64,000 nucleotides of DNA from Natrinema salaciae (GTDB lineage Archaea; Halobacteriota; Halobacteria; Halobacteriales; Natrialbaceae). This document shows, in pieces, positions 37,491-56,946 of this stretch. The notes beneath the pieces were generated by a model. That model searched no databases. It had not been told where the DNA came from and saw only the letters and a list, made by a program, of their open reading frames with translations. The stretch covers positions 1 to 64,000 of the forward strand of contig NZ_FOFD01000006.1 in assembly GCF_900110865.1 (NCBI RefSeq), read 5' to 3'. The first letter of the stretch is position 1. Each line of letters begins with the position of its first letter. The translations under genes and the position numbers were made by a program.

Positions 37491-38297
37491 ATGGACATCT
37501 CCGAACTCGGTCAGGAATTCGATTTCGTAGATACAGTCACAGTAGAACGGAATGAGGAAGGACAAATCGCCCTCAAGATGCCCCAGAATCGTTACGACAA
37601 ATCCGACGAAATACCAGTTCATCAATACGGCTGGGGCCCATTCTGTAAGTTCTACGCTGATACCTTCCCCTACAAAGAAACGGCGGGCGTCTACATTTTC
37701 ACTGCAAATCACCAGATAGTGTACATCGGCGAAACCGTGAACATCCACAGTCGAATTCAAGCAGGATACTCGAATATCTCTCCCAAGAACTGTTTCGAGG
37801 GAGGACAGCAGACCAACTGCCGGATCAACAATGCAATCCTCGAAATCGTGCGTAACCGTGGGCAGGTCGCACTATGGGTAATGGAGGCCGAGGATAGAAA
37901 ACAGCGAGAAGCAGAGTTAATCGAGGAGTGTAATCCATCATGGAATTTCGAAGCGCTCTCAATCACAACTGCTAGGCGGAAGCAATCCACGCGTGTCGAT
38001 GATATAGCAGACCAACAGATAGCTACTCATAGAGAATCCTCAACAAGCCAGTCACAATCTACCAGTGGCAAGTATGCGCCGCTCTACGATCATCTCAAGA
38101 ATGCTGATTCGAATACGATTCACGTCTCTTTCGAGAAGATAGAAGACATTCTCGACGCTCCATTACCAACATCTGCTCGGGAGTACGAGGTTTGGTGGAA
38201 TCCTACTGGCCACTCCCATGCCGAAGGATGGGCAGAACTCGGATGGACGGCAGACCCAGATCTCGACCGTGAAATGGCTACTTTTGAGAAAATATGA
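37491..38297 (+). CDS. GIY-YIG nuclease domain protein
   Basis: 268 aa. A GIY-YIG core is at about 60-150: GVYIF (GIY, 66-70), VYIGET (YIG, 77-82), Arg88 in HSRIQ and the metal-binding Glu in ELIEECNPSWN (about 143). The C-terminal third (about 190-268) is a separate domain with HVSFEKIEDILDAPLPTSAR and WWNPTGHSHAEGW, which resembles DNA-recognition modules attached to nucleases. The ATG at 37491 is used. Lower GC than the core. Probably part of a mobile or restriction function. Confidence 0.75.
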   Translation: MDISELGQEFDFVDTVTVERNEEGQIALKMPQNRYDKSDEIPVHQYGWGPFCKFYADTFPYKETAGVYIFTANHQIVYIGETVNIHSRIQAGYSNISPKNCFEGGQQTNCRINNAILEIVRNRGQVALWVMEAEDRKQREAELIEECNPSWNFEALSITTARRKQSTRVDDIADQQIATHRESSTSQSQSTSGKYAPLYDHLKNADSNTIHVSFEKIEDILDAPLPTSAREYEVWWNPTGHSHAEGWAELGWTADPDLDREMATFEKI

Positions 38298-38444
38298 TAA
38301 CTATACACGAATATCAAGCAGGCTGGGCCAGAACCGGATGGTTTTCGCCCGAGAGGCTTTCACGTGGGCGAAAAATCCCAGTCTTTATATCAGTTCCCTC
38401 GGTGGGCAGCCGGCAGCCACAACACCACTCAGAACCAGCCAAAC

Positions 38445-39173
38445 ATGCGATACCCGACCACAATCTACGCACGCGTCTCTACCCCCGAACAGGACATCGC
38501 CCAGCAGAAGGAGAAATTGTGGAACCACGCCATCGACGAACTCGAGATCGAGCCCTCGAACATCGACGTGCTCGAAGACGAGGCCACCGGCAGCAACACA
38601 GACCGCGACGGCTACCAAGAGATGATGCGTCGCGTGTGTGAAGGAGAGACCGAACGCGTCATCGTCCGATCGATTACTCGCCTCGGGCGCAATATGCGTG
38701 ATCTCAACGACGCCGTCCACGTGATCGTCGAGGACAACGGGTGCGGACTCGTCGTCGTCAACGACGGCCTCCACATCGAACCAGAGACAGAGGAACTCAA
38801 CCTCGAGCAGAAGGCTATCCTCTATGGCCTCTCCTTCGCAGCCGACATCGAACACGAGATGATCAAGCAGCGAACCATCGACGGTCTCCGCGCTGCCGAA
38901 GAAGCCGGGAAGCGCATCGGTCGACCGATCTACGGTTTCACCTCTGAAGATGGGAACCTCCGGCCAGACGACGAGGAGTACGAGCAGGCTGTACAGGCAA
39001 TCGTGGCCAAGGAGGAGCTCGGCTGGTCAGACCGCCGTATCCAACGGCAGATCGGCGTGCCGCGACGAACAGTCCCTCGAGTTGTCGAACGACGCGGCAT
39101 CTACCTTGGAGACCGAGGCGATGACGACCTTGCCGAGCAGGCACGTGATGATCTGGAGGCGATTGGCCAGTAA
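38445..39173 (+). CDS. Serine recombinase (resolvase/invertase family)
   Basis: 242 aa. The catalytic domain starts at once: YARVSTPEQD with the nucleophile Ser12, then RVIVRSITRLGRNMRDL with conserved Arg residues and the long helix AADIEHEMIKQRTIDGLRAA. The C-terminus has a helix-turn-helix, KEELGWSDRRIQRQIGVPRR, for site recognition. Such enzymes cut and rejoin DNA through a phosphoserine link. Located between the GIY-YIG gene and the histone-fold cluster, it may have mobilised part of the island. No inverted target pair was identified. Confidence 0.9.
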   Translation: MRYPTTIYARVSTPEQDIAQQKEKLWNHAIDELEIEPSNIDVLEDEATGSNTDRDGYQEMMRRVCEGETERVIVRSITRLGRNMRDLNDAVHVIVEDNGCGLVVVNDGLHIEPETEELNLEQKAILYGLSFAADIEHEMIKQRTIDGLRAAEEAGKRIGRPIYGFTSEDGNLRPDDEEYEQAVQAIVAKEELGWSDRRIQRQIGVPRRTVPRVVERRGIYLGDRGDDDLAEQARDDLEAIGQ

Positions 39174-39331
39174 TCTCGGTATCTGGCCACCCTCCGAGAG
39201 GTTGCTCATTCAACGCGTGTCCGCGAACTCCGTTTTGAACCCCGGTTGCCGATCCCGAACGAGACCGATCAGGAAGACGAACCTTCCCAACTGTAGAAAG
39301 GCCTATTTGACACCAATGACAGGTAGGAGTC

Positions 39332-39715
39332 ATGGCAGTTGAGGGAGAGGACTCCGAACAAGCAGAAACAGAAGAAAACGATACCGAAGACATTGCACCC
39401 CCGGTCAAACCAACCTCGCTGAAGCGATTCGTCAAACAGCACTCCGATATGAACGCCGGCGGTGATGCAATCGACGAACTGCAACACCATCTCGAATTCG
39501 TCGCTGAGAGAATCTGGCTCGAAGCCAGCAAGCACGCCGAAGACGACGGTCGCAAGACAGTGAAAGAGCGTGACGTGCAACACGCCATAGACCAGTTCAC
39601 GGAGCCTCACGATCTGATCAAGAAGACCACGGAGCAACTGGACTGGATGAAACGCAATCTCGACAGGCAGGTTGAACAGTCCATCGTGTACGCCGAAGAC
39701 AGATATGACGACTGA
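39332..39715 (+). CDS. Histone-fold protein with C-terminal helical extension
   Basis: 127 aa. Residues 28-89 fit a single histone fold: helix 1 SLKRFVKQHS, loop, long helix 2 DELQHHLEFVAERIWLEASK, the loop-2 motif GRKTV and helix 3 KERDVQHAIDQF. The match to archaeal histones is strongest at GRKTVKERDVQHAI. Unlike the usual haloarchaeal histone, which is a tandem doublet, this has one fold, an acidic tail in front and a coiled-coil-like extension (LIKKTTEQLDWMKRNLDRQV). The stop overlaps the next gene by 11 nt, so it is probably a subunit or regulator of that system. Confidence 0.75.
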   Translation: MAVEGEDSEQAETEENDTEDIAPPVKPTSLKRFVKQHSDMNAGGDAIDELQHHLEFVAERIWLEASKHAEDDGRKTVKERDVQHAIDQFTEPHDLIKKTTEQLDWMKRNLDRQVEQSIVYAEDRYDD

Positions 39716-41195
39716 CCAATTCCTCTTCAGGGACGGATACTCCATTCCAGAGAAAATCCGCCGAATCCCAACCGGGAGAATCACAGCGGAAACACCAGAG
39801 ATTGACTCTCGACTGCAAGACCTCTCACTGTCAGAGAGCGAGGTCAGTCGGATGGGGAAGAACGACTTCTTCGACGAGACCGAGGATCAACTCACCACTC
39901 CGGCCTACAGGAACTTCGTCTCCAAACTCTTCGACAAGTACGGCGAGGAGGGCGACAAGTTCAATATGCAGCTCTTCGTCGCCGAGGAATCCCTTTCCCA
40001 CGAACATCTCGAACGCCGCGTCAATCAATACAACGAGGAACGGATTGACCGCGACTTCGACTCACTCGTAGAACCCATCGTCCTCACCAATCACGAGGAG
40101 AACTCCGACTCCATAGACCTACAGTTCCGAACAACGGCCCACCTCGAGGACATCAACCCTGACGACAAGATACCGATCCAGATCATCGAGACCGAGTCCG
40201 GCGACACCGTGAAACGGTACGGCTCCGACTATCACATCAAGGCCCCCGCCCGCTACCGAGTTGAGACCCGGGTCTATACAGAAACCGGACTCACCGCGGT
40301 GTCGAACTACTCCAAGATCAAGGACGGGTTGAAGACCGACATAGCAAAGACCGTCACCGAGATGGCGCGGAGTAGGGTGCAGACCGGAATCGGAAACACC
40401 AGCCGTCTGGAAATGAACGAGACGGAGCTCCTACTCCTCCTGCAGGAGATGGAGGGCGACATCTCAGGGCTCGGTTACACTCTCGAGATCGCCGGAGTGG
40501 ACACGGCGGACTTCACCGGACAACGGGACGAGGACATGGTTGATACCGATGTCATCCGCGCCGCCGACGAGGCTGGCCAGATCAGGAAGATCAAATACTA
40601 CGTCGATCACCCCGGCGCAGACCCGGATGACGAGCGCGACGTGATGCTCCGAATCTTCGACGACGGCCACCTCACCACGTCCAAACCGGTACCCTCCGAT
40701 CTCCTCGACGTCATCGTCCTCCAGATAAACACCATTCGAGGGTACGACGGGTTCCTAACCCCACTGATCGAACTTATCTACTCCTACGTCGGCGCGAAGT
40801 TCCGCGGCAAGTCCTCGATGATGCGAAACTCCCACATCTCAAAGACCAACCTTGCATTCAACAATCTCATCGAGGAGTACTTCGAGAAGAATCAGACTCC
40901 GACAGAAGAGCTTCGCCTGTACAAGTCGATGATCGCCAACATCGGGATAAAGCTCTGCGACGAAGGCATTCCAAGAACCGCCGACATAGACGAGGTTTCC
41001 GAGGTGGACGACTTCTACGATCTTCAAGGCAAAATCGAGGAGTTCTTCCAAGACTACTCGCAACGGTCACTTGGAAAGACGAGCATCGATTACGATGAGC
41101 TGTCCAACCACCTAAACCACCTACTCCAACAAGACTGGGAGAGTCCAGTCGAGATCATCGAGTATGCGATAAACCTGTATGATCTTAACCGATGA
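39705..41195 (+). CDS. Unknown 496-aa protein of the histone-fold cluster
   Basis: No recognised family. Visible parts: HLERRVNQYNEERIDRDFDS, a long beta-rich centre (SDSIDLQFRTTAHLEDI, KAPARYRVETRVYTETGLT, IRKIKYYVDHP), RDVMLRIFDDGHLTTSKPVP, and a helical C-terminus with HLNHLLQQDWESPVEIIEY. No membrane segment and no Walker or nuclease motif that I trust. It overlaps the histone-fold gene by 11 nt and the following gene by 17 nt, so the three form one coupled unit. The start is the ATG at 39705. Confidence 0.65.
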   Translation: MTTDQFLFRDGYSIPEKIRRIPTGRITAETPEIDSRLQDLSLSESEVSRMGKNDFFDETEDQLTTPAYRNFVSKLFDKYGEEGDKFNMQLFVAEESLSHEHLERRVNQYNEERIDRDFDSLVEPIVLTNHEENSDSIDLQFRTTAHLEDINPDDKIPIQIIETESGDTVKRYGSDYHIKAPARYRVETRVYTETGLTAVSNYSKIKDGLKTDIAKTVTEMARSRVQTGIGNTSRLEMNETELLLLLQEMEGDISGLGYTLEIAGVDTADFTGQRDEDMVDTDVIRAADEAGQIRKIKYYVDHPGADPDDERDVMLRIFDDGHLTTSKPVPSDLLDVIVLQINTIRGYDGFLTPLIELIYSYVGAKFRGKSSMMRNSHISKTNLAFNNLIEEYFEKNQTPTEELRLYKSMIANIGIKLCDEGIPRTADIDEVSEVDDFYDLQGKIEEFFQDYSQRSLGKTSIDYDELSNHLNHLLQQDWESPVEIIEYAINLYDLNR

Positions 41196-42378
41196 AGCCG
41201 ATGTGCTAGAGGAAGCCTTCTTTCGGGCCGACGTTAGCGACGTCACTGCTCTTGAATTTCGGGAGCAAGACCTGATGGACTACGCCGACTTCCTCCACAT
41301 AGAGCGGGACATCATCCCCGACATCCGCCCGTACTTCTCCATCTCTGAAGATCAGCGGTGCGAGAAGCACGGTATCGCGACTTCCTCGTGCGGCTGCGGC
41401 GAGTCAAGGCAGGTTCTGGCTTCGGTCTACCGACTTGACCCCGATTCCCTCGTTGAGGACTGGGTTGACGCGGTGCGCGACAGGGGCATCTTCGACTCCG
41501 TCGAACTGGAGCAGATCGACTCCACGAGATACGTCCTGAATGCGTGGCTGGATCGAATCCAGATCTCCTTTCATTGCTTCTTCGACAAAGACGAGATGGA
41601 GAGACACGATTTCGAACCGCAGGCGATGGAGTTCGGCGTCTCGTTCTTCGGCGATCAACAGGTAGTTGAACGGGAACACCGCTACTCGTGGCGTGAGTTC
41701 CTCAATGACGATTTCGAGGACAACATCACGACGGACGTCAAACACCTGAAAGAGGCCATCGGATCCGATTTTTACGAATACACACCGCTCGAGGACTTCC
41801 GTGACCGAGTGCGGCAGAGTCTACGCGACTACTTCGAGGACTCGGGGTACGAGGTGCGGCGCGAGGTGAGCGAGATCTGTCCGGTGGAAACTACGCAGTA
41901 CGGCATCGACACGGGGAAGACCGACTTCGTGGCTCACAGCGACGGATCGAAGTTCATCGTCTGTCACTGCGAGAAAACGCCGAGCTGGCATGTCCACCAC
42001 TTCTCGAACGGCCGCATCAAGTCCGCTGAGCAGACTCCGATCATCGAGGATATGACGGAGAAAATCGAGTCCAAGATCAACACGTATCAGGACATCAGGC
42101 TGAACAAGCAGACCGCCTCGAGGTTCGTAACCGTTCTCGCTACGTTCTTCTCCATCGGTTTTGTTGTCCTCCTGTTCGAGCGTCTCGGTCTGATCGCGTC
42201 TGTTCTGCAGGAACAGTTCCAACTCAGCGGCAACCTGCAGTTGATTGCGTTCGCCCTGCTCATCTTCAACGCCATCGCGGCTATCGCACTCGCCGCTGTT
42301 GTCACTCGCCCGTACATCCGCGACTTCCGTTTCAGTTGGAAGATCGAATCTTTCGAGGGCGCACCGGAACAGCGGTGA
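41179..42378 (+). CDS. Membrane-anchored protein with Cys/His cluster
   Basis: 399 aa, no recognised family. Near residue 56-75 is a metal-type cluster, RCEKHGIATSSCGCGES. The middle is acidic and mixed alpha/beta; KTDFVAHSDGSKFIVCHCEK (about 254-273) is a possible degenerate nuclease-like Asp...Glu-Lys strand pair, unproven. Two transmembrane helices follow at about 313-338 and 350-376 (FVTVLATFFSIGFVVLLFER; LIAFALLIFNAIAAIALAAV). The bulk is thus predicted to be cytoplasmic and tethered by its C-terminus. It overlaps the preceding gene by 17 nt. Confidence 0.65.
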   Translation: MILTDEADVLEEAFFRADVSDVTALEFREQDLMDYADFLHIERDIIPDIRPYFSISEDQRCEKHGIATSSCGCGESRQVLASVYRLDPDSLVEDWVDAVRDRGIFDSVELEQIDSTRYVLNAWLDRIQISFHCFFDKDEMERHDFEPQAMEFGVSFFGDQQVVEREHRYSWREFLNDDFEDNITTDVKHLKEAIGSDFYEYTPLEDFRDRVRQSLRDYFEDSGYEVRREVSEICPVETTQYGIDTGKTDFVAHSDGSKFIVCHCEKTPSWHVHHFSNGRIKSAEQTPIIEDMTEKIESKINTYQDIRLNKQTASRFVTVLATFFSIGFVVLLFERLGLIASVLQEQFQLSGNLQLIAFALLIFNAIAAIALAAVVTRPYIRDFRFSWKIESFEGAPEQR

Positions 42379-42575
42379 AGGACGGGAACTGAACGTGGTC
42401 ATCCGGCTACAACCTACAAGTTGAGCAGCCCCCTACCTCTACACGTGACCGACGAAGAGAACCTCGAACCCATCGACGGTCTTCTCGACGATCTCTGACC
42501 TCAGACGACGCATTCGGTGTCCCTGATCGCAGACACCCCGGAAACTCATTAGCTTTCGAGAAAGGACACACGTTA

Positions 42576-42923
42576 ATGGACAGGTACGAACTCGCCGCAC
42601 GAATACAGATGTGGATTGAGTATCGGAAGAGCAGACTGGCTTGGTGGTACGAGAACCAACTCATCCGATACCGCCCCGATCCCCTGTACTGGGTCTACAC
42701 GTCCATCGACAGAGAAGTGATCGTACTCACTTACGCCACGTTCGTGGTACTCATCCCAACGCTCCTCTCCTCCAACGGCCATATCCTACCTGCCGTCTTG
42801 ACGGCCCTCTTCGGCACGGGCGTAACAAGACTTCTCCGAATCGGACGGCGTAAACGACGCAAAGAGGATTTGATAGACAAAGTGAAAGAGGAACTCAAGA
42901 ACGAAGACTGGCGTCGATGCTGA
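42576..42923 (+). CDS. Small two-helix membrane protein
   Basis: 115 aa. A basic, aromatic N-terminus (WIEYRKSRLAWWYENQLIRY) is followed by two hydrophobic helices (VIVLTYATFVVLIPTLLSS; ILPAVLTALFGTGVTRLL) and a Lys/Arg-rich tail (RIGRRKRRKED). No family recognised. It is 197 nt downstream of the histone-fold operon on the same strand and may belong to it. Confidence 0.6.
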   Translation: MDRYELAARIQMWIEYRKSRLAWWYENQLIRYRPDPLYWVYTSIDREVIVLTYATFVVLIPTLLSSNGHILPAVLTALFGTGVTRLLRIGRRKRRKEDLIDKVKEELKNEDWRRC

Positions 42924-43776: not shown

Positions 43777-45186
43777 CTATTCTTGCTTCTTGTAGACTAA
43801 GAAGTACGAGTGGTTCTTTCGGGCCCGGCGCTGTTCATACATCCGACCCACAGTTGGAGTATCTGGTCGGACAACGACGAACAAATCCCGAGCGTGGAAG
43901 CCCATCTCCTCGTAGATATTCGTCACCTCAACGTGGGTAAGACGCTGCTCGTTCCGACTGACCTCATCCTGCATTTTCGCTATGAGGAGACCATCATCAC
44001 GTAGCACACGACGGGCTTCCTCTCCAGCCGCCGCGTACATCTCGAGAACAGCATCGTGGTAGGTCGCTGACTGTTCGCCGGTCGTCCCGACATAGCGATC
44101 CTTGATCCAGTAATCGTTGTCCGACGGCTTGTCCGGCGTTTCGTAGAACCCTTCCGCGTACGGTGGATCGAGGACGACGCAGTCGAACGATGCGTCGTCA
44201 TAGGGAAGGTCTCGACAATCGACCCCGTCTGTAGAGTCTGGTGATCGCGAGGGGTCGATGTCCGTCGCAGTCAGCTCGTACTTCCCTGACGGGACTTGAC
44301 GCCAGAAAACCCCCTCTCCATAGGTAACGTCGGCTATCGCTGAGCCGGGCTCGACGTGCAGGTCAAGTACCTCGGGGAAGACCTCATCGTTCGTTCCCTT
44401 ATGCGCTGAGAGAATGGCGTCTTCTGCCGCGACGCGTTCCGGTTCTTCATCATCCGAGGACGAATCCTGCTCCTCTTCGTCTGAACTCGAAGTCCCGTCC
44501 TCGTCGTCAGACTCTGTCTCTGTTTGAATTCGGTCGCGAACCTTCTGGTACGCACCGTAGACGGACTGCTCCTCGCGGTCGAGTTTGTCGACCTCATGTT
44601 GGGCGACGGTATCTCCATCTTGAGCGGCATCCCAGACTGTCTTCGCCATATCGTACGTGCGCCCGGAGCCGAAACCAACCGTATCGGCGACCTTGTCTCG
44701 CGTCTTACCGAAGTCGTCGTCGGGCGAGGATGTCTCTTCGTCACCTTGTGAAGAATTTTCCACGATGTCCGTACGCGTCCCCTGTCGTTGGCGCGCTCGC
44801 TCGCGCTCAATTCGTTCTAGCTCCTCTGCCTCTCTGAGCTTCTGGCTAAACGACTTGTCTCGGCTCTGGTTGTGAACGAGGAGTCGCTCCTGTCGCTCAA
44901 GGTCTGTCTCTAAGCGGACGAATCGAACGGGAACTTGCTCCAACCCGACTTTCTTTGCAGCCTCCGTGCGTCGATGTCCAGAGATGATGGTCGGTTGATC
45001 GGCGACCTCCCCCGCCTCTGGTTGGGGATCGACGACGATTGGCTCTACAACACCGATGTCTTCGATGCTTGATAGTAGTGCCTCGTCAGGGTCTGTACGG
45101 TCGCCATATACGTCATCGTTCAACGGATGTGGTTCGAGAGAGTCCGGATCGAGATATTCAATCTCCGATGGCACCGCCTCAGCCAT
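43777..45186 (-). CDS. ParB-like domain fused to DNA methyltransferase
   Basis: 469 aa. Residues 10-110 are a ParB/sulfiredoxin-like domain with the box TIISGHRRTEAAKKVG. A charged Ser/Asp/Glu linker covers about 130-265. The C-terminal methyltransferase has a motif-I-like ADVTYGEGVFW (285-295) and the catalytic LDPPYAEGFYE (339-349), typical of N6-adenine or N4-cytosine DNA methylases. Such fusions occur in phages and mobile elements. It is divergent from brxA with 151 bp between, so it may share control with the BREX locus, which already encodes its own methylase. Confidence 0.8.
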   Translation of the reverse strand: MAEAVPSEIEYLDPDSLEPHPLNDDVYGDRTDPDEALLSSIEDIGVVEPIVVDPQPEAGEVADQPTIISGHRRTEAAKKVGLEQVPVRFVRLETDLERQERLLVHNQSRDKSFSQKLREAEELERIERERARQRQGTRTDIVENSSQGDEETSSPDDDFGKTRDKVADTVGFGSGRTYDMAKTVWDAAQDGDTVAQHEVDKLDREEQSVYGAYQKVRDRIQTETESDDEDGTSSSDEEEQDSSSDDEEPERVAAEDAILSAHKGTNDEVFPEVLDLHVEPGSAIADVTYGEGVFWRQVPSGKYELTATDIDPSRSPDSTDGVDCRDLPYDDASFDCVVLDPPYAEGFYETPDKPSDNDYWIKDRYVGTTGEQSATYHDAVLEMYAAAGEEARRVLRDDGLLIAKMQDEVSRNEQRLTHVEVTNIYEEMGFHARDLFVVVRPDTPTVGRMYEQRRARKNHSYFLVYKKQE

Positions 45187-45337
45187 TTTTCAAATAGGTG
45201 GTGATGGGCTCCCAATAACTGCTTCGTCACAAACTTAGCACTCTTCGAAATCCGGGGATGGCACGCACCTACATCTAAAGTCTCCTCGATTCGTTTTTCC
45301 CTATCAACTAAGTGGTGTGGATGGTTCGAGACAAAGT

Positions 45338-46180
45338 ATGACTCTCCGCACCGACGGAAGGGGAACTTCCCTACCGTCGCTCGACTCGACATTCTCTCAC
45401 GAAGAGGTGTCGATGGCGCTCACTAGATGCGGGCTTCTCGTAGAACGGGCAGAGACGCTCGCTCGGCTGTACGCCCAACATCGGGACTGGACAGTCGTCG
45501 AAGAGCAATGGCTCGAAGAACGGTTCGACGAGCGTAGTACGCGCGGCAGTTCGAAGGGCATCTATCGCGCTCTCAGCTCGCGATTCAAGACAGCGGGAAG
45601 CGAACTCCCCTCGATCGTCCAACTTCCGACGGTCTTCGATCAATGCGAGGCGAAACGCGATAAGGCGCAGGTACTGTACTTCTACTTAGTGGAGGACGAC
45701 CCTCTCGTGAAGTACATCGTCCACCGATACGCCAATCGGCTTCAGGAGTCCGGCGTCGACGGGCTGGACTTCGAGCAGGACACAGTTGAACGCCTTCTGA
45801 ACGAATTCCATTACGACGATGGGAGCGAGTTTGATTACGCAGAATCGACGACGCGTCGGTGGGGCGAAGGACTCCGCTCTGTGATGCGAGAGATCGACGT
45901 TCTCGAGACACAGCAGGCATTACAGGGCCAGATTCCCAATATCGGGACGACACCGTTGCTCGTCGCGTCAGGTTACTCGTGGGAGACCCACGGCGATGAC
46001 TGGCTTTCCCAGCCGACTGGCTGGCTCTACCTCTTCCAATCGGAACAGTACTGGGACTCCTTGGCCGAACGAGTGAGCGACGATCCGAACTGGGAAGCGA
46101 GCGGGATTCACGGTGAACTGAGACTCCAGCCGGTCGTTGATACATACGACTGGGCCGAACCATGGGAGGGCGAAGTATGA
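45338..46180 (+). CDS. brxA: BREX protein BrxA (DUF1819)
   Basis: 280 aa from the ATG at 45338 (a GTG at 45317 would add seven). The all-helical DUF1819 pattern is visible: EEVSMALTRCGLLVERAETL, VLYFYLVEDDPLVKYIVHRY and RRWGEGLRSVMREIDVLETQ. The C-terminal part with PLLVASGYSWETHGDDWLS matches the BrxA end. BrxA binds DNA and is an accessory component of BREX phage exclusion. It is first in the operon, and its stop overlaps the brxC1 start as ATGA (46177-46180). Confidence 0.8.
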   Translation: MTLRTDGRGTSLPSLDSTFSHEEVSMALTRCGLLVERAETLARLYAQHRDWTVVEEQWLEERFDERSTRGSSKGIYRALSSRFKTAGSELPSIVQLPTVFDQCEAKRDKAQVLYFYLVEDDPLVKYIVHRYANRLQESGVDGLDFEQDTVERLLNEFHYDDGSEFDYAESTTRRWGEGLRSVMREIDVLETQQALQGQIPNIGTTPLLVASGYSWETHGDDWLSQPTGWLYLFQSEQYWDSLAERVSDDPNWEASGIHGELRLQPVVDTYDWAEPWEGEV

Positions 46181-49100
46181 CTGACGAGAGCTGGTTCGCT
46201 GCCGATGTTGGGAGCGATTTCGAGGAGTCCGTCCGCATCGACCGCGAGGATGACGGTCGCGATCATCGACTGGAATCGATCGACACCTACCACGTGACAG
46301 AGGAGTCGAAGGACTTCATGTCCGACTTCTTCTCGCGTCTGCTCGGCCGTTCCGAGGATATGCGGTCGGGCGCGAACTACTGGCTCTACGGATACTACGG
46401 GAGCGGAAAGAGTCACCTTCTTAGCGTACTTCGCGGGCTTCTGGATAGCGAATGGCTTCGACAGCGCGACGATGTCTGGGAGCAGCTAACCGACGGTCGT
46501 GAGCTGGAGACGCTCGAGTCCACGTGGTCGTCGATCCACGATGATTACGAGGTCATTCCAATCTCGGTGAACCTCCTGAAGCATCAGGGTCAGAAGAAAT
46601 TGAGCTTCAGCGAGATCGTTCTCCGCAGTGCCCACACGTCGGAACGGCTCACCGGTGCCGATGGAGGGCTCTCGTCGCAACTCGACGTCGCCTTCTTCGA
46701 GGACTGGTATCGGACGACCGACGCGTGGGATGATCGGACTGCCAACACCCAAACGGCACTACGGAGTACGGTTGACAGCCCCGAGAAGTACGACTGGGAG
46801 GATGTTCAGCAGTACAACGCTCTCGCGGATGCCGTTCTTCCCACACTCTTCGAGCAGGAGACCGGCACGGCGGATGGTCTAGACGACCTGATGCCGTCCG
46901 ATCTCGACCCCCAAGCGATGGTCGAGCGCCTCGAACAGTTGCGGAGCAACCGCGAAGAGGAACTCGGACGCCCGGTCAAACTCGTACTACTACTCGACGA
47001 GGTCAGTCTCTTCATCGGGACGGACTTCGACCGCCTCACCGAGTTACAGACCCTTGCAGAGAGCGTCGACGAGACCGGTGACGGCGACATCCAACTGGTG
47101 GCGACGGCACAGGCCAAAATCGAGGACGTCCAGCCGCAGTTCGCGGCTCGCGGGGCCGACTTCAGCATCGTCAAGGATCGGTTCCCCCATCGGTTTGGCC
47201 TTCCGAGTCGGCACGTCGGCGAAATATCGACCCAGCGGTTGCTCAAAAAGACGGTAGATGGGAAAGAGGACGCAGAACACGTCCTCGACCGAACCAGCAA
47301 CGAGCCCGAGACGTTACTCGTGTACTCGGGCATCGAACAGAACACCGAACCACCGCTCGACGACATCGATCGCGAGCGCCTCGTCGAGTTCTATCCGTTC
47401 CTCCCGTATCAGCCACCGCTGTTCCTCGAGATCCTCTCGAACCTCCGGCAGGAAGCACACGACCCGGCGAAGTCGATCTTCTCGGGAACCGCACGGGCGA
47501 TTTTGGCCCTCGTTCACGGACTCCTCCAAGAGTGGATAGAGGCGGGCAACGAGACCGACGTCATTTCGCTGGTCGACTTCTACGACCTCATCGAACCAGA
47601 ACTCGATGACATCACGCCACAGGACGTGGGGGTCATCGAGGAGATCGAGGAACAGTACAAGGCAGGCGAACTGGAGGAGATCGACGTGGATGTCGCGAAG
47701 GCCGTGTTGCTCCTCCAGCACATCCCAGATACGATTCCGATGTCCGAGCGAAATCTCGCAGTCGCCGTGTTGAGTGACCTCGACGGCCCGACTCAGTTCC
47801 AGATGGAGAACCGCGTCGAGGATTCCCTCCAACGGCTTCGGAAATTCATCCGTCCCACGCATGACGAAACGGGGCCGAAGTATGCGTTCACTCATCCGGA
47901 AGAGCGGGAGATCATCGAAGCCTCCGAGCAGAACCTCGACAACCCGGACTGGCAGTCCATCATCGAAGCCGTGGACGGGTATCTCTGGGAGGACATCGTG
48001 CGCGACCTCTCCCTCCCGACATCGGCTGAGTACCCGGATACCGGTGAGCAATATCCTGTTCGCTACGAATTCAGTATCGACGGGATCGAACTCGATACGA
48101 CAGTCGATGCAGAGGACGCACTCAATGTCGAGGTCGCCGTCGAAGGGATTTCTCCCGCCGCAGCAGACATCAGCTACGACGGCGATCCGCTCGAATGGAC
48201 GATCGGACAGGATGGACTCGACGATCTCCGTGATAGTCTCATCGAGTGGTGGTCGCTCAGAGATGCCGTCGGAGACCACACGCTCCCACAGTCCGTCGAA
48301 CGTGACCTCTCCGACCGCGCAGCTCGCGTCCAGAGCAAACTCGTTGAGGCGCTCAAGAGCGGGACGTTCGACGTCAAGGATCGCGGCGATCAGATCGGGG
48401 GCATGGCTTCGGGAGTCGAGGAGTATCTCGACGTCAACTACCCCGACGACTTCCACCCCGTTATGCTGCAGGTCGGCGACGAGCACTTACAGGAGCTCCG
48501 TGGACTCTCCGCACAAGACCCGCTCCCTACGTGGGCCCAGCAGATCGATGTCGCGACAGAAGACCCCGAAACGCACGAGGGGTCGATCCAGAACAATGTG
48601 CGCGCCTTCACTGGCCGACAGTTGAAGCAACGCGGCGGGAACCTCGCGATGGCGACGATCCTCGACGGTATCGTGAAGAAGAAGCCGATCTACGAGGACG
48701 CTCGCCCCGCGCTGTGTGCGATTATTTGGGGCCTCTGCCGGAAGGGAGACTTCCTGCCCATCGACGAGACAGGTGACTCCCTCGAACTCGACGACGTCAT
48801 CGACCTGAACAAACTGACGACGACGCGTCTGAAGATTGCGAAAGGTGACAGTGTAGGAAAGATCCTCCGCGAGGGAGGATTTATGGACTCGACGGAGACC
48901 ATCCCGGACGGAATCGTCAGGCTCCAGTCCGCGAACGACACGCTCGCGGGTCGACTCGGTAGTCTCGTGGAAGACGTCAGGCTGGTCGCCGAGAGTGACA
49001 TCCAAACGCGCGCCGTTCGCAACCTCCTCGAGTCGTTTGTGGAGGCGCTCGAAGACGAGCAGCAGAACGCAATCGACCGAAGGGAGGCCGTCAAATCACG

Positions 49101-49860
49101 TGACACCGACTGGAAGGACGTCGTCGAAGCAACCAACGACGCTCGGGAGTGGTACGACGACGCCGAGGAAGTGTGGAGTTTGCGCCTTCCCGCACTCACG
49201 CGAATCGATTCGCAGTTGACTCTCGCCCAGCAGTCGTACGACTGGCTGACCGAAGAGTGCGAAACGGCCAGCCAGACGCTTCGCGACAGCATCAACGACT
49301 ACGAGGGCGAGTGGTGGACACACGATGGCTGGGATCGGTTCAACGACGCCCAAACCACCTCGCCGGCGCTCGACGACGCGATCGAGACCGCGTGGGACTC
49401 GTTCCGAGCGGAAACTGAGATCGATGTGTTCGTCGACGAGTTGCAGGAGCATCCGTGGATTCGGCCCGCGAGCGAGTTCGGTTCGAACGTTCGGCCGGCC
49501 TTCGAGAGCGAGTACATCACACCGCTCCGCCGGGCCGCATCGTGGCACGAGGACATCTCGGACGCGGTGTCGACGGTGATCGGCGGAACGACCAACACCG
49601 AGGCTGACGACTTCATTCGAGCGACGAACACACTCCTCGACAGCGAACCCCTCACTGTGGTTGCCGGTAGCGGCATAGAGGAGTTGCGAGGTACGTTCGA
49701 GGAGCTACAGACACTCGTTGGGGATCAGTCCCCCACGGACATCACGGCGATCGGGGTTCTCCCGTCGGATCGCGAATCGCTGGACTCGGAACTGGAACGG
49801 CTCGTCGAACGCCATGACCTCAGTATCGAGCGGACTGAAATGGGGGTGATCATCCGATGA
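46177..49860 (+). CDS. brxC: BREX ATPase BrxC/PglY-like, copy 1
   Basis: 1,227 aa. Walker A is GYYGSGKSHLL (72-82) and Walker B is KLVLLLDEVSLF (about 267-278). The segment QLVATAQAKIEDVQPQFA is a likely sensor, followed by KDRFPHRFGLPS. This P-loop family forms the large ATPase of BREX and is needed for methylation and exclusion. The C-terminal half is helical and Asp/Glu-rich. It differs from copy 2 throughout, so it is not a recent duplicate. The next gene starts within its stop (ATGA). Confidence 0.87.
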   Translation: MTDESWFAADVGSDFEESVRIDREDDGRDHRLESIDTYHVTEESKDFMSDFFSRLLGRSEDMRSGANYWLYGYYGSGKSHLLSVLRGLLDSEWLRQRDDVWEQLTDGRELETLESTWSSIHDDYEVIPISVNLLKHQGQKKLSFSEIVLRSAHTSERLTGADGGLSSQLDVAFFEDWYRTTDAWDDRTANTQTALRSTVDSPEKYDWEDVQQYNALADAVLPTLFEQETGTADGLDDLMPSDLDPQAMVERLEQLRSNREEELGRPVKLVLLLDEVSLFIGTDFDRLTELQTLAESVDETGDGDIQLVATAQAKIEDVQPQFAARGADFSIVKDRFPHRFGLPSRHVGEISTQRLLKKTVDGKEDAEHVLDRTSNEPETLLVYSGIEQNTEPPLDDIDRERLVEFYPFLPYQPPLFLEILSNLRQEAHDPAKSIFSGTARAILALVHGLLQEWIEAGNETDVISLVDFYDLIEPELDDITPQDVGVIEEIEEQYKAGELEEIDVDVAKAVLLLQHIPDTIPMSERNLAVAVLSDLDGPTQFQMENRVEDSLQRLRKFIRPTHDETGPKYAFTHPEEREIIEASEQNLDNPDWQSIIEAVDGYLWEDIVRDLSLPTSAEYPDTGEQYPVRYEFSIDGIELDTTVDAEDALNVEVAVEGISPAAADISYDGDPLEWTIGQDGLDDLRDSLIEWWSLRDAVGDHTLPQSVERDLSDRAARVQSKLVEALKSGTFDVKDRGDQIGGMASGVEEYLDVNYPDDFHPVMLQVGDEHLQELRGLSAQDPLPTWAQQIDVATEDPETHEGSIQNNVRAFTGRQLKQRGGNLAMATILDGIVKKKPIYEDARPALCAIIWGLCRKGDFLPIDETGDSLELDDVIDLNKLTTTRLKIAKGDSVGKILREGGFMDSTETIPDGIVRLQSANDTLAGRLGSLVEDVRLVAESDIQTRAVRNLLESFVEALEDEQQNAIDRREAVKSRDTDWKDVVEATNDAREWYDDAEEVWSLRLPALTRIDSQLTLAQQSYDWLTEECETASQTLRDSINDYEGEWWTHDGWDRFNDAQTTSPALDDAIETAWDSFRAETEIDVFVDELQEHPWIRPASEFGSNVRPAFESEYITPLRRAASWHEDISDAVSTVIGGTTNTEADDFIRATNTLLDSEPLTVVAGSGIEELRGTFEELQTLVGDQSPTDITAIGVLPSDRESLDSELERLVERHDLSIERTEMGVIIR

Positions 49861-50438
49861 CGACCAAACGTCCCTTCCACGACTTCACGGAGCGGCTCGC
49901 ACAGTTCGCCGACGGACGACGCGGCATCCGAAACCCATTCGTGATCGTCCCCGTCCAACCGAAGTACGAGCGACGGGTCGCCGAACGGCTCACCGAGTGG
50001 GCGACGAACCCGCATCGTACCGAGGAGTTCCCGGATGACGGAACCGTCCAAGTCCTCCGGCTGGACGAACTGTTCGTCGAAACCGACGTCTTCGAACTCG
50101 CGGTCGACCTCGGCGAGAACAGCCAACCGGCGACGATCACCGAAACGATGCAAGACCGATTAGCCGAGGAACTCGTCGCGGTTATGGTCGAGAAAATCGA
50201 CGCCCCAGCCCAGCAGCGACACGTCGTTCTCCTCACGCACCTCGGGAGCCTCTACCCGTTTACGCGTGCGTCGGAACTGCTCGACGAACTCGACCGCCGC
50301 AACGTCCAGTCTACAATCGGCATTCCGTTCCCCGGAGACATCGTCGGTGGGAAACTGAGCTTCTTCGGCGAGGAATCGCGCAACTACTACCCGGCCCACC
50401 AGATCGAAGGTCGGGTTGAGGGGGTGCATCTCCAATGA
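49857..50438 (+). CDS. brxB: BREX protein BrxB (DUF1788)
   Basis: 193 aa, normal length. The family signatures are LTHLGSLYPFTRASELLDEL (about 121-140), the following VQSTIGIPFPGDIVGGKLSF, and FFGEESRNYYPAHQIE at the C-terminus. BrxB is a small conserved BREX component of unknown biochemical role, found with BrxA and BrxC. It is locked between the two brxC genes with four-base ATGA overlaps at both ends, which argues for stoichiometric translation. Confidence 0.88.
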   Translation: MTTKRPFHDFTERLAQFADGRRGIRNPFVIVPVQPKYERRVAERLTEWATNPHRTEEFPDDGTVQVLRLDELFVETDVFELAVDLGENSQPATITETMQDRLAEELVAVMVEKIDAPAQQRHVVLLTHLGSLYPFTRASELLDELDRRNVQSTIGIPFPGDIVGGKLSFFGEESRNYYPAHQIEGRVEGVHLQ

Positions 50439-53400
50439 GCGACACACACATTCACGACATCTTCCAGCAGTCACCGACCCGCGAACTCGAGGAAGTCCAG
50501 AAGGTCAACGCCCGAGCGCGGGCCGAAAACGACGTCCGCGAGTTCTATGAGACCGACAGCGCCCGCGATGTGCTCACCACGCTCGGGAACCTCGTCGACA
50601 AGTATCCCCACGAGGAACCGCGCTTCCTCTACATCTCTGCGACGTTCGGGTCGGGGAAGACGCACCTCCTGAAGCTCATCGGGTTCGCTGCCGACACCGA
50701 ATCGGAGTTCGCCGACCTCGGCGAAGAGTTGGCGAACAGATGGCCGGGCTTCCAATCGTTCCGACAGAGCGTCGCTAACTCTCACGTCGACCGGCTGAAA
50801 CCCGTCTTCCTGAACCTCCTCAACCGGGACGCGTCACAGGAACCGCCGCTCCCCTACCTCATTTACGAGGCGATCGGCCGCGAACTCGGGTATCCCACCG
50901 ACCCGAATTGGCTGCTTGAGTGGGCGTGGCAGCTCGACATGAACCACGGTGACTGCTGGGAGCGACTACAGGAAGTCGAGCACGACGGACAGACGTTCGA
51001 GGATGTGTACGACGAGCGGGCGTCGCTACGGAGCTGGCTCTACGACGCCGTTCCGACACTCGATGACTCACCGTACGCGTCACGGGAGGAAGTCAAGCAG
51101 TCGATCGACGACGCCATCGAGGAAGTCGATCCCGATGAGTTCGACCCCGACGAACTCGTCGACCGCATCGAAGCGGCTCAAGAGTCGCTGAGCACGCCGG
51201 AGACCGAGACGGAGTTGCTGATCGGGCTTGACGAGGTGGCGCTGTTCATTGGTGATGGCCGCCACCGCTACAGAGAGTTCCAAGAAACGATGGAAGCCCT
51301 GACGGAGCTGGGCGTCGGGCCCAACCCGCCAGTCATCGGGACTGGACAGTATCCGATCGAGCGTATCCACGGCGAGTTCGACGATACCGAAGTCACGGAG
51401 CAGCCGTGGTACGGCGCTCAAGAACCGCTCGAGGGTGCCGACACCGAGATCATCGTCCGAAAGCGGTGGCTGCAGAAGGACGCCGAGGGTGGACAGGCCG
51501 TCGAGTCCGCGCTTCGGGAGATGACCGACCTGACACTCGACGCGTACTCCGATATTGCCGGCGCCGACCCGGACGCAGTCGAGTCGTACCCGTTCCGCGA
51601 GTACGATCTCGGATTGCTCCGGACGGTGATTCAGCAACTGATGCCACGGGGACGCGTGACCGAAGAGGAGTATGTGCAGGGGCGGGCGTTGCTAATCCTC
51701 GTCCGCTCACTGTTCACGCGGTTCGAGTGGGGAGACAAGCAGGTCGGAGCACTCGTCACGTGGGACGAGTTGTACGACCTGCTGGTGGAAGAGACGACGT
51801 ACATCCCGCTATGGGTGCAGGAGATGGTCGAGAACAAACTCGTCCCCTCAGCTGGCGGCGACGAAAGTGCGTTCTCCGTCCGCGTTGCGAAGGCGCTGTA
51901 TCTACTGAATCAGGTGCGTTCCGAGGTGCCGTCGACGCCGGCGAACCTCGCCCGGCTGATGGTCAAGTCAACTCACGAGTCGTTCGAATCCGTCCGAGGA
52001 GATGTCGAATCGGCACTCTCCGACCTCCTCGAGGATCGGAAGGTACTGACGGAGACGAACGACCGCGGCGACGAGGAGTACCTGCTGGTCTCCGAAGAGC
52101 AGGAGGACATCCTGACGCGAGCGAAGACTCGCGCACAGCAGATTCCGTCGCATCGACTTTCGGCCAAGTTGGAGAACTCCATTCGGGAGGGAAGCAACCT
52201 CCTGCTCTCGGAGGGCAGTCGACACGAGGTCGATCTCGAGGGGGAGCGCAAAGTCCCGCTCCGTTTCGGCTACTCTGTTCTCGACCCTATCGAGCAAGCA
52301 CCGACGCCAGAGTTTGACGCCGTTCGTGTGCGGCTGGTCGCGGGCCGCGACGAGGAGGTTAGCGATCAGGTTGATGCATGGCAGTCGACAAACGAGGGGC
52401 GGGATGGAGGCGAGCACGTCCTCGTCGCCGTCGAGCTACAGGGATCGACGATCGACCGCCTCCGGGACGTGATGGGCATGCAGGAGGTGCTGTCAGAGGA
52501 AACGGAAACGTATCCGGACTTGGAGTCCGACCACCGCGACGAACAGCGGGCGCTCGAGTCGGCGATTCGCGAGCAACTCGAGGAAGCGGACGTCTACGTC
52601 CGAACAGGCGGGACGAGAGGGCGATACGGAGACGTGATCGAGCAAGTCGTGGAAACGCAAGTACGGTCTGTGTTCAGCGGGACGCGCTTCGTCCTAACCA
52701 ACGGGATCACGGAAGTCGAGGACGCCAAGCAGATGGCGCGGTTCTTCCGCGGCGTCGACGACTGGCCGCTTTCGAGCGAGGACGCCGTCACGCTCGGTGT
52801 GGATACTGACCGCGCCGAACTCGCCGACGGCTGGTGTCAGGAATTTCTCGACGAGTACGAGGACACCCAGTCGCTTCGTGCCGAGGATTTGCTTACCCAG
52901 ACTGTCCAGCGCGGAGGCACATATCGCGGGACACCGCAGGAATCGATCTCAGCACTGTTGATCACGCTCGCAACGGCCAACAAAATCGCGTTGCGCCGTG
53001 ACGACGAGTACATTACCGAACCGGACGAGATCGGGCGAGCGGTCAGAAACAAGACAAACCTGACCGACGTACAGATTCGGTTCGAGTCACTGGACGGAAT
53101 CGATCCAGACCAGATTCAGGAGGCCGTTGAGACGCTAATCGGTGAGGAGCCGGACGGAACCGATCCAGATGCGTGGCTCTCGGAGTTGGCTACATGGGTT
53201 GACGAGAACAGCGTGCTGGTGAAACGCGTCTTGCGAGGCGTCAGCAGAGAGTTCGGCGAAGGCGCTTCGCTGGACGAACTTGAGAGGGCTCTCCAGCCCG
53301 CACTCGGGGGCGAATCTCTCGAAACAGACGACTTTGCATCTGACGAAATCGCACGGCAGTCCGAGCGTTTCGCTCGGGCAAGAGGACTCTTCCGGTCGGT

Positions 53401-54277
53401 CGAGGATGACGACACCCTCTGGGAGCAGTTCAGCCAGCGAACGATGGAGATGCAGCAGCTCTACCCCGGTGCGGACATCACCGGGGAGATGCAAGCGATC
53501 GTCGGCGGGGACGAAGTGCCTGATGCCGACCGGCTCCGAGCAACGATCGACGAATCCGACGCTCACAGACGAACTGTCGTCCGCGAACAGTACGAACGCA
53601 TCACGGGAGAGTCGCCGCCGGATGAGGAACCCGAGAGCGTGGTCTCCAGTCTTGCAACGTGGCTCTATGCTCACGATGGGAGTAGCAAGGAAACTGCCGA
53701 CCGCGTCGCCATCGAATTCGACGGTGTAACCATCGACGATCTCTACGAGCTCTTCGAGACGGCATGGAACGGTGATTCGTTCTCGGAAGAAGACCTCGTC
53801 GACCCGACGGTCGTTCAGCAAGCCAAGCGGTACGAACGGGCACGGCGGCTCCTCGAAGATTCGGGTAGTGAGGCCTCGCTCTGGTCGCAACTTCGCGACG
53901 CGTCGAGACGACTCGAGGACGAGCGTCCGAATCACCCAGTCACGACCGACGTGAACGAGATGCTCAGTCGATCGCAGCCGCCGAGCGTTGACGACGTAGA
54001 GCAACTTCTCGATAAAGCAGAGAACCCCTTCGAGGTCAACGAGCGGCTCGAGGAACTTGCCAGCGAACTGCAGTCCGAGTATCCCGACCACGATCTCACC
54101 CAAGAGGTCGTCGATGCAGTAGAGGGATCCAGCCCTCCGAGTAAAGAACGGATGGGTGAATTGATCGAAGATGCCGAGCAGTTGCTCGACGGTGTTGACG
54201 AGCAGCTGCGGCGGATTCGAGAGACCATGGATGAATTGCCTGATGACTCTGTGGTGATGATCGAGCTGCTCGACTGA
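50435..54277 (+). CDS. brxC: BREX ATPase BrxC/PglY-like, copy 2
   Basis: 1,280 aa. Walker A is ATFGSGKTHLLKLI (about 68-81) and Walker B is LLIGLDEVALFIGDGRHRY (about 261-279). RVTEEEYVQGRALLILVRSL lies in a helical lid region. The last 400 residues are strongly acidic, with repeated helices (RFARARGLFRS, RYERARRLLED). Two large P-loop genes flanking brxB are the hallmark that I recall for haloarchaeal BREX type 5. It is the last gene of the first operon, convergent with the inverted gene that follows. Confidence 0.87.
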   Translation: MSDTHIHDIFQQSPTRELEEVQKVNARARAENDVREFYETDSARDVLTTLGNLVDKYPHEEPRFLYISATFGSGKTHLLKLIGFAADTESEFADLGEELANRWPGFQSFRQSVANSHVDRLKPVFLNLLNRDASQEPPLPYLIYEAIGRELGYPTDPNWLLEWAWQLDMNHGDCWERLQEVEHDGQTFEDVYDERASLRSWLYDAVPTLDDSPYASREEVKQSIDDAIEEVDPDEFDPDELVDRIEAAQESLSTPETETELLIGLDEVALFIGDGRHRYREFQETMEALTELGVGPNPPVIGTGQYPIERIHGEFDDTEVTEQPWYGAQEPLEGADTEIIVRKRWLQKDAEGGQAVESALREMTDLTLDAYSDIAGADPDAVESYPFREYDLGLLRTVIQQLMPRGRVTEEEYVQGRALLILVRSLFTRFEWGDKQVGALVTWDELYDLLVEETTYIPLWVQEMVENKLVPSAGGDESAFSVRVAKALYLLNQVRSEVPSTPANLARLMVKSTHESFESVRGDVESALSDLLEDRKVLTETNDRGDEEYLLVSEEQEDILTRAKTRAQQIPSHRLSAKLENSIREGSNLLLSEGSRHEVDLEGERKVPLRFGYSVLDPIEQAPTPEFDAVRVRLVAGRDEEVSDQVDAWQSTNEGRDGGEHVLVAVELQGSTIDRLRDVMGMQEVLSEETETYPDLESDHRDEQRALESAIREQLEEADVYVRTGGTRGRYGDVIEQVVETQVRSVFSGTRFVLTNGITEVEDAKQMARFFRGVDDWPLSSEDAVTLGVDTDRAELADGWCQEFLDEYEDTQSLRAEDLLTQTVQRGGTYRGTPQESISALLITLATANKIALRRDDEYITEPDEIGRAVRNKTNLTDVQIRFESLDGIDPDQIQEAVETLIGEEPDGTDPDAWLSELATWVDENSVLVKRVLRGVSREFGEGASLDELERALQPALGGESLETDDFASDEIARQSERFARARGLFRSVEDDDTLWEQFSQRTMEMQQLYPGADITGEMQAIVGGDEVPDADRLRATIDESDAHRRTVVREQYERITGESPPDEEPESVVSSLATWLYAHDGSSKETADRVAIEFDGVTIDDLYELFETAWNGDSFSEEDLVDPTVVQQAKRYERARRLLEDSGSEASLWSQLRDASRRLEDERPNHPVTTDVNEMLSRSQPPSVDDVEQLLDKAENPFEVNERLEELASELQSEYPDHDLTQEVVDAVEGSSPPSKERMGELIEDAEQLLDGVDEQLRRIRETMDELPDDSVVMIELLD

Positions 54278-54399
54278 CGGCCTGCTGTTGCAAAATATCG
54301 AACTCATTTATATTCATTTCGTAATTACGCAACACAGAGAGGCCATCACGGTCGAAAACGACGTACTTGTCCGAAATCATCTATGAGAATCAGGTTGGC

Positions 54400-55260
54400 C
54401 TATCGTGTATCGAGATAATCCGGCGGATCATCGCGGAACTCCCTTAGCCACCGAAGTGCAGCCTCTGTCTCGGTGAATTCCTCTTCGTGAGTTCCTGCAC
54501 CATCGCGCCATTCGTCGTCAATACGATACCGGTGGCTCACGGTCAGAATCGTCGTGTCGGGGTGATCTGTTCCCCCTACGCGTTCGAGGTACCAGTCAGG
54601 CTCGTAACGCCGAAATACGGCCACATCATCCGTTTCCTCCTCAACTCGCGTTAGAAGCCGGTCGAGGGCTGTACTCCGGGACGCTCTCTCGAGGTGCGCC
54701 GTGATGCTCGTAGCGATCCGCTCGCCATGATCGTACCTTTCGAGATTGAACTCCTCGTCAACGGCGTTCTCCACGTCGCGAAGGTGCTCTAACAGCTCCG
54801 AATCGAGGTCTCTGATCCACCTCTCGATGTCGCCCACATCAGCACTCAGCTCGATCAAGACCTCGAACGAGGAGTCATCACGAGCAGCAAACAGAGGTCT
54901 CTCGTTCAGTCTGAGAGCACCTCGAGAGATCAACGTATCTCCAAATACCTGTACGACCGGAATATCCGACGCTCGAAGCTGGCGTTGCAGGCTAACGATG
55001 TCGTATGGGGGTGCTTCATCGACTAGTTCTACGCTGATCGAGGCTAAGGTTCGTCTCGAATAGAACTCGCTCAGCCGTGGATACGATGCTCTTGTTCGGA
55101 CGTGGATGTCGATTTCGCTGATGGTTCGCAGATTCACAGGGTCGGGGAGACGGGAGGCCGCCTCGTCATTTAATTTAGCTTCACTTCGATAGAGGGCTGC
55201 TCTCGCTGAGGCCCCTATCCGAACCGGAAACCCGACGACCGAGCGAAGAATCCCCTTCAT
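54400..55260 (-). CDS. Unknown protein inverted within the BREX locus
   Basis: 286 aa, not recognised. It begins MKGILRSVVGFPVRIGASAR, then LRTISEIDIHVRTRASYPRL, VFGDTLISRGALRLNERPLF, FEVLIELSADVGDIERWIRD and ends with aromatic/acidic helices (ALRWLREFRDDPPDYLD). No membrane segment, Walker or nuclease motif is visible. It is read against the BREX genes and shares a 123-bp divergent promoter region with the NucS-like gene, so the two may be co-regulated. Confidence 0.6.
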   Translation of the reverse strand: MKGILRSVVGFPVRIGASARAALYRSEAKLNDEAASRLPDPVNLRTISEIDIHVRTRASYPRLSEFYSRRTLASISVELVDEAPPYDIVSLQRQLRASDIPVVQVFGDTLISRGALRLNERPLFAARDDSSFEVLIELSADVGDIERWIRDLDSELLEHLRDVENAVDEEFNLERYDHGERIATSITAHLERASRSTALDRLLTRVEEETDDVAVFRRYEPDWYLERVGGTDHPDTTILTVSHRYRIDDEWRDGAGTHEEEFTETEAALRWLREFRDDPPDYLDTR

Positions 55261-55383
55261 CTTTAGCTACTCCCGGTCGAGAGTTGTTAAATCACGGTGA
55301 ACGTCTGTCGACCGGTTCCACGCATTGAATAGTACTGGTGGCTCCAAAGGATTATCATGCGTCTGTGAGACTATTTCGACATC

Positions 55384-56427: not shown

Positions 56428-56546
56428 GAGAGGGCAGCAGAGACCGCAGCTCCACTCTTTTCGAACCTTGACCCAGCACCGGGTCGGCTTTTTGCTGTGT
56501 CTGGCTTCTGTTCACGGAAGGCGCTTAGATTGCTGCGCTGTGGCAG

Positions 56547-56798
56547 TTAGAACCCGCTATCGTCGGCGAGTTCCAGAACTTTCGCCCCCACGATAACGAT
56601 CAGCGCGATGATTGAGAAGAACCCTGCAAGCTCGAAGAGCGCCATCGGGTTCTCTACGAACCACCAGAAGATTGGTTCGAGAAACTCGATCCCGTAGAAG
56701 TCCGCGAGTATCTTCGAAATCACCGCTCCGAAGACCACAAACAACAGTAGATACAGAAAGTACCGGAGCTTCCGAGGGCCGGCGAAGTCATCAACCAT
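56547..56798 (-). CDS. Small two-helix membrane protein inside the BREX locus
   Basis: 83 aa from the ATG at 56798. Two hydrophobic helices: YFLYLLLFVVFGAVISKILA and FELAGFFSIIALIVIVGAKV, with an aromatic loop (FLEPIFWWFVENPMALF). Inverted relative to pglX. No family is recognised. Small membrane proteins in defence loci can act in membrane disruption or signalling, but nothing here proves that. Confidence 0.6.
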   Translation of the reverse strand: MVDDFAGPRKLRYFLYLLLFVVFGAVISKILADFYGIEFLEPIFWWFVENPMALFELAGFFSIIALIVIVGAKVLELADDSGF

Positions 56799-56946
56799 AC
56801 CTAAGCATTCAAGATCAGTCGTAAATATTTCGTGGAGAACCACCCAGCCGATCTTTTCCAAGTCCTGATCCGGACGCCGTCTGAGAGTATATGGACAATC
56901 TTCAAGACATCTTGATGACTCTGCTTGTAACATCACTGAGTTTCGT

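What the first reader, a model, noticed from the sequence alone, without database searches (positions are those of the whole stretch)
39332..42923. Histone-fold protein at the head of an unrecognised membrane-linked operon
A single histone fold with a GRKTV loop and coiled-coil extension overlaps by 11 nt a 496-aa protein of no known family, which overlaps by 17 nt a 399-aa protein with a CxxH...CxC cluster and two C-terminal membrane helices. Two more small membrane proteins follow. The cluster sits between a serine recombinase and a BREX locus, a defence-island setting. A histone fold as part of such a module is unusual and could be the DNA-sensing part of a membrane-effector defence system.
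Basis: partly seen in the sequence, partly recalled or inferred. Interest (0 to 1): 0.75.

Follow-up and report, generated by a model that had tools for sequence, protein, structure and literature searches.

The report
Histone, RdgC-fold and membrane protein operon
A three-gene cassette that salt-loving archaea pass around, pairing a histone with a DNA-clamp-like protein and a membrane protein, is a further copy of an operon described in 2024 without a function; its make-up and its neighbours suggest an antiviral alarm, which has not been tested.

Summary
The sequence observation is correct. A single histone fold (H, 39332-39715), a 496-aa protein (A, 39705-41195) and a 399-aa protein with two C-terminal membrane helices (B, 41179-42378) overlap by 11 and 17 nt.

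This is not an unrecognised operon. It matches the "RdgC histone" operon of Schwab et al. 2024 (PMC11390915): histone first, then an RdgC-like protein, then a winged-helix membrane protein. My AlphaFold model of A has the RdgC / CENP-L/N / RexA fold with the extra N- and C-terminal domains described there.

New here:
- All 16 operons found, including this one, carry H-A-B in that order. H, A and B trees agree. DNA similarity to close relatives stops at the cassette edges, so it moves as one unit.
- The two small genes downstream do not belong.
- 12 of 391 sampled haloarchaeal genomes have it. Strong restriction or defence genes lie within 5 kb in at least 6 of 15 loci, against 0 of 18 control regions.
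- B carries a nearly invariant CxC...HxH motif.

No function is published. My preferred reading is a DNA-sensing, membrane-coupled antiviral system that works like RexAB, with a histone added. This is inference, about 40%. Plasmid maintenance and recombination control remain open.

The parts
39212..42458 (+). extent of the cassette as defined by DNA conservation
   Evidence: 93.6% identical to Natronorubrum thiooxidans over exactly this stretch, with mostly unrelated flanks; 84% over 39284-42361 in the Halobaculum roseum plasmid; 70-71% over about 39399-42356 in three more
39296..39311 (+). BRE/TATA-like promoter element (GAAAGGCCTATTTGAC), 21-36 nt before the start codon of H
   Evidence: the same pattern is seen by eye in the upstream sequences of L018, L019 and L016; not tested statistically
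39332..39715 (+). H: histone-fold protein, 127 aa, with C-terminal helical extension (RdgC histone)
   Evidence: Pfam histone match in 10 of 15 members singly, all 15 by the family profile
39705..41195 (+). A: RdgC-fold protein, 496 aa; RdgC-like core about residues 82-346, extra helical N-domain 1-80 and C-domain 350-496; conserved D320-G-H322...P328 motif
   Evidence: AlphaFold pLDDT 82; Foldseek RdgC E 1.3e-6; VIA Z 10.4 over 210 residues; conservation
41179..42378 (+). B: 399-aa membrane protein; winged helix 1-87, PD-(D/E)XK-like domain without active-site motif 88-190, TBP-like domain 193-300 with C262-x-C264...H271-x-H273, two TM helices 316-334 and 356-374
   Evidence: AlphaFold pLDDT 78; VIA matches (weak); motifs and hydropathy

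Best explanation
Identity (shown by anatomy, about 95%): this is an RdgC histone operon, a mobile three-gene cassette of haloarchaea. Mechanism (inferred, about 40%): the three proteins form a DNA-gripping complex tied to the cell membrane that guards against viruses or other foreign DNA in the way of RexAB. H tetramers bridge DNA. A, with the RdgC/RexA/CENP-L/N fold, forms a dimeric clamp or horseshoe on DNA and recognises an abnormal DNA state such as replicating or recombining invader DNA. B, with its winged helix, CxC...HxH domain and C-terminal two-helix membrane hairpin, receives the signal from A and acts at the membrane by permeabilisation, growth arrest, or by holding the DNA there. 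Shown: gene order, co-inheritance, the predicted folds of A and B, the membrane helices, mobility, and the defence-rich setting. Inferred: complex formation, DNA binding, the trigger, and the membrane output.
For: H, A and B occur together in the same order in 16 of 16 loci. Distances correlate: H-A r 0.96, H-B 0.94, A-B 0.98, and trees agree. Overlapping genes and a conserved cassette boundary. A matches RdgC (E 1.3e-6; Z 10.4), Iml3/CENP-L/CENP-N (Z 9.3-9.8) and lambda RexA (Z 6.2). RexA is a DNA-binding sensor whose membrane partner RexB arrests the cell, and its kinship to RdgC and Iml3/Chl4 is published (PMC11077077; PMC12894663). B has a two-helix C-terminal hairpin in nearly all members. 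Patchy presence: 12 of 391 genomes, 10 of 86 genera. A plasmid of another family carries A at 92% identity, while a congener has 70%. Neighbours: BREX; DruE-like, HmaB-like and type I R-M; type IIG, SNF2 helicase and DrmMI-like; Pycsar by annotation. At PADLOC E below 1e-40 within 5 kb: at least 6 of 15 loci against 0 of 18 control regions from the same contigs, Fisher p 0.0045.
Against: No functional data exist. RexA scores lower than RdgC and CENP-L/N, so the fold alone does not choose defence over recombination or DNA anchoring. B has 2 TM helices, RexB 4. Defence islands also hold non-defence cargo, and the control regions include core chromosome, so the enrichment partly reflects islands in general. 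The RKT loop is lost in several H members and helix 1 is not strongly basic there, so DNA binding by H is unsure. H. volcanii expresses its copy only modestly (PMC11390915), which is neutral.
Confidence: 0.4

Rival explanations
1. A maintenance or segregation module: A and H grip the DNA of the element as CENP-L/N with histone folds do at centromeres, and B anchors it to the membrane so that it is inherited.
For: A matches Iml3, CENP-L and CENP-N almost as well as RdgC. Five of 16 loci are on annotated plasmids. ParA, ParB or Orc1/Cdc6 genes are nearby in three loci.
Against: At least four copies lie on contigs of 2.5-4.4 Mb that are chromosomal. Only about 3% of genomes have it. Plasmids with it already carry their own ParA or Orc genes. 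The cassette is inserted among unrelated flanks.
Confidence: 0.2
2. A recombination or replication-fork regulator: A restrains RadA as RdgC restrains RecA, H bridges the DNA ends, and B confines the process to the membrane, for example during DNA uptake or mating.
For: RdgC is the best structural match. RdgC modulates RecA (PMC11077077). Phage RdgC proteins also match.
Against: Patchy distribution, mobility and defence-gene neighbours are not typical of a core repair factor. RdgC has no known membrane partner (own knowledge).
Confidence: 0.22
3. A local chromatin or transcription regulator (histone, RdgC-like and winged-helix proteins) that silences foreign genes, with the membrane part only for localisation.
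For: Histone plus winged-helix-like domain; [quoted passage not shown]
Against: Does not explain the constant membrane hairpin or the RdgC fold.
Confidence: 0.13

Closest known systems
RdgC histone operon (Schwab et al. 2024, Nat Commun 15:7950; Haloferax volcanii D4GVY1 and some Bacillus)
   Same: Histone gene first, then an RdgC-like protein with extra N- and C-terminal domains, then a winged-helix protein with TM domain; same class Halobacteria
   Different: Nothing that I could find. The D4GVY1 sequence itself was not at hand for direct alignment. A is split into two genes in five of the loci studied here.
RexA-RexB exclusion system (lambda; P. putida PP_5643-5644)
   Same: RdgC-related DNA-binding fold encoded beside a membrane protein
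   Different: Extra histone gene; B has 2 TM helices and large soluble domains; not beside a CI repressor; no sequence similarity detected
RdgC (E. coli 2owl/2owy)
   Same: Core fold of A over about 210 residues, Z 10.4
   Different: About 10% identity, two extra domains, membrane and histone partners
CENP-L/CENP-N (Iml3/Chl4) of the inner kinetochore
   Same: Same fold class, Z 9.3-9.8; in eukaryotes also works with histone-fold proteins
   Different: Eukaryotic; about 8-10% identity; no membrane partner
M. jannaschii HmvA histone (8bdk)
   Same: Closest solved histone to the H family
   Different: H has a longer C-terminal helical extension and lies in an operon

Membership tests
RdgC histone operon | histone fold with long C-terminal helix, first gene of the operon | tested here: met
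   Histone fold and first position in 16/16 loci. The C-terminal extension is present by sequence; the tetramer was not modelled.
RdgC histone operon | second gene encodes an RdgC-like fold with extra small N- and C-terminal domains | tested here: met
   RdgC core 82-346, extra helices 1-80 and 350-496
RdgC histone operon | third gene: winged helix, two further domains, TM domain; found only with the histone | tested here: met
   the winged-helix match is weak (Z about 5-6). B lay beside H and A in every intact locus, but B was not searched alone in whole genomes.
RdgC histone operon | sequence relation to the type member D4GVY1 of Haloferax volcanii | not tested
RdgC family | RdgC fold | tested here: met
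RdgC family | RdgC sequence family match | tested here: not met
   No Pfam, NCBIfam or PHROG match for A
RexAB | RexA-type fold in the first component | tested here: inconclusive
   8twq Z 6.2, 161 residues at 4.7 A, below RdgC
RexAB | four-helix membrane partner RexB | tested here: not met
   B has two predicted TM helices
RexAB | phage exclusion through membrane damage | not testable with these tools
   Needs infection assays
BREX | H, A or B is a BREX component | tested here: not met
   No PADLOC match for H, A or B; the cassette occurs away from BREX elsewhere

The most novel reading that the evidence does not exclude
The RdgC histone operon is the first antiviral system that uses a histone: a DNA-bridging histone and a RexA/RdgC/CENP-N-fold clamp jointly sense invading DNA and switch on a membrane effector. 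It would also show a prokaryotic pairing of a histone fold with the fold used by CENP-L/N at eukaryotic centromeres.
Probability: 0.3. Interest if true: 0.85.

Novelty: new member of a known kind. Interest (0 to 1): 0.52.

Why it matters
The operon type is on record but has no proposed function. The evidence here (fixed three-gene unit, horizontal movement as a cassette, defence-gene neighbours, RexA-related fold beside a membrane protein) gives a concrete, testable function. Published work places a member in Haloferax volcanii, a laboratory archaeon with genetics. If true, it would put histones into prokaryotic immunity and broaden the small RexAB group. If A instead anchors DNA, it bears on how the CENP-L/N fold came to work with histones.

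Tried and rejected
Chance adjacency of three genes: rejected.
The two small downstream membrane ORFs as members: rejected, not conserved and outside the DNA-similarity block.
A as a member of a sequence family: no match in four libraries, nor in PDB sequences.
An active nuclease in B: residues 88-190 resemble PD-(D/E)XK folds (TIP26 Z 8.4, Bax1 Z 7.1), but no D...(D/E)xK motif is seen by eye in the alignment, and Foldseek gave no match below 0.001.
Homology between A and the TBP-like domain of B: not detected by profile comparison.
Viral carriage: no relative in phage records or viral contigs, at the sensitivity of those searches.
Wider distribution: of 393 genomes drawn across the phylum only two had A, both in the same order as the window.
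Bacillus members mentioned in the literature were not found in plasmids by single-sequence tblastn and were not pursued.

Full report
OBSERVATION. The three genes are as described: H 39332-39715, A 39705-41195, B 41179-42378, all on the + strand, overlapping by 11 and 17 nt. H matches the archaeal histone models, and a profile of its family finds solved archaeal and eukaryotic histones, best HmvA of M. jannaschii (8bdk, E 5.8e-10). A and B match no family in Pfam, NCBIfam, PADLOC or PHROGs. The window lies on a 306-kb contig of a 4.86-Mb genome.

A FIXED UNIT. Relatives of A were found in 11 and then 12 of 391 sampled genomes of the class, in 7 of 125 of the family, and in 5 plasmids, all haloarchaeal where a name is given. 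Two of the 393 genomes drawn across the phylum, both from the window's own order, had it. In every case but one H lies upstream and B downstream, with identities down to about 20%. The exception, G247, is a decayed copy with intact H, a broken A fragment and no B. Distance matrices of H, A and B correlate at 0.94-0.98 over 16 loci, and at 0.83-0.96 with one representative of the close group; trees agree in their supported forks. In five loci A is two genes that meet at about residue 225; on the tree these five do not form one clade, so fission or fusion happened more than once.

A MOBILE CASSETTE. The window is 93.6% identical to Natronorubrum thiooxidans over 39212-42458 and 84% to a Halobaculum roseum plasmid over 39284-42361, with essentially unrelated flanks. 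A congener has a version of only 70% identity. So the unit moves horizontally, and it excludes the two small ORFs downstream. A BRE/TATA-like element sits 21-36 nt before the H start in the close relatives (sequence read by eye).

FOLDS. The AlphaFold model of A (pLDDT 82, pTM 0.80) matches E. coli RdgC (Foldseek E 1.3e-6; VIA Z 10.4, 210 residues, 5.4 A), Iml3/CENP-L/CENP-N (Z 9.3-9.8) and lambda RexA (Z 6.2, 161 residues, 4.7 A), and RdgC proteins of phages. Residues 1-80 and 350-496 are extra. The model of B (pLDDT 78, pTM 0.57) has a winged-helix-like N-terminus, a domain that resembles PD-(D/E)XK folds (TIP26 Z 8.4, Bax1 Z 7.1) but shows no catalytic motif, a TBP/phosphoglucomutase-C-domain-like part, and two membrane helices. 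These B assignments are weak. Conserved candidates for function are D320-G-H322...P328 in A (14 to 16 of 16), and C262-x-C264...H271-x-H273 in B (15 to 16 of 16).

KNOWN KIND. Schwab et al. [quoted passage not shown] Every feature that I could test here is met. They propose no function. No other paper in the library uses the term 'RdgC histone', and none was found linking it to defence.

FUNCTION. The published fold kinship RdgC-RexA-Iml3/Chl4 (PMC11077077) and the RexAB mechanism, in which a DNA-binding RexA activates a membrane-damaging RexB (PMC12894663), suggest the parallel: A as DNA sensor and B as membrane partner, with H as an added DNA-bridging subunit. The setting fits. Within about 8 kb lie BREX (window), a DruE-like helicase (L017), an HmaB-like methylase (L018), a type IIG-like enzyme (L019), an SNF2/DrmD-like helicase and PglX-like protein (L020), type I R-M (L028), a DrmMI-like protein (L029) and, by annotation, Pycsar (L021). 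With a PADLOC threshold of 1e-40 and 5 kb, at least 6 of 15 loci against 0 of 18 control regions from the same contigs (best control hit 1.3e-27) gives Fisher p 0.0045. Limits: a home-made gene caller was used, the controls include core regions, and some loci are related. L025 has B in two frames, and L017 and L028 are cut by contig ends.

VERDICT. The defence reading is the best supported of several and is testable in Haloferax volcanii. Calling it RexAB would be wrong (two rather than four TM helices, no sequence match); saying that it may work like RexAB is fair.

Noticed in passing
window 45317-61167: BREX locus with brxA, two different brxC/pglY genes, brxB and pglX, all full-length PADLOC matches; two brxC copies resemble haloarchaeal type 5 BREX (own knowledge).
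   Followed up: partly
window 43777-45186 (-): ParB-like N-domain fused to a DNA methyltransferase, between the cassette and BREX.
   Followed up: no
window 37491-38297 (+): GIY-YIG nuclease-like protein with DUF7662 at the C-terminus, directly before the serine recombinase.
   Followed up: no
window 38364-39173; L016:6706-7431; L018:6583-7356: A DNA-invertase-type serine recombinase lies beside the cassette in three loci (55% protein identity in L016, 30% and opposite strand in L018); it may help move the cassette.
   Followed up: partly
L080 (G247:C1:897000-913000), about 7750-8400: Decayed cassette: intact histone gene, A broken after about 80 residues, B gone.
   Followed up: yes
L020, L026, L027, L028, L029: A is encoded as two overlapping genes that meet near residue 225, within the RdgC-like core; this arose or was lost more than once.
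   Followed up: partly
L025:10124-11546: B split over two frames, either a frameshift error or a pseudogene.
   Followed up: no
L024:11949-16868: Four-gene cluster beside the cassette with an AAA ATPase and three other proteins; the two largest have no PADLOC match. A possible undescribed system.
   Followed up: no
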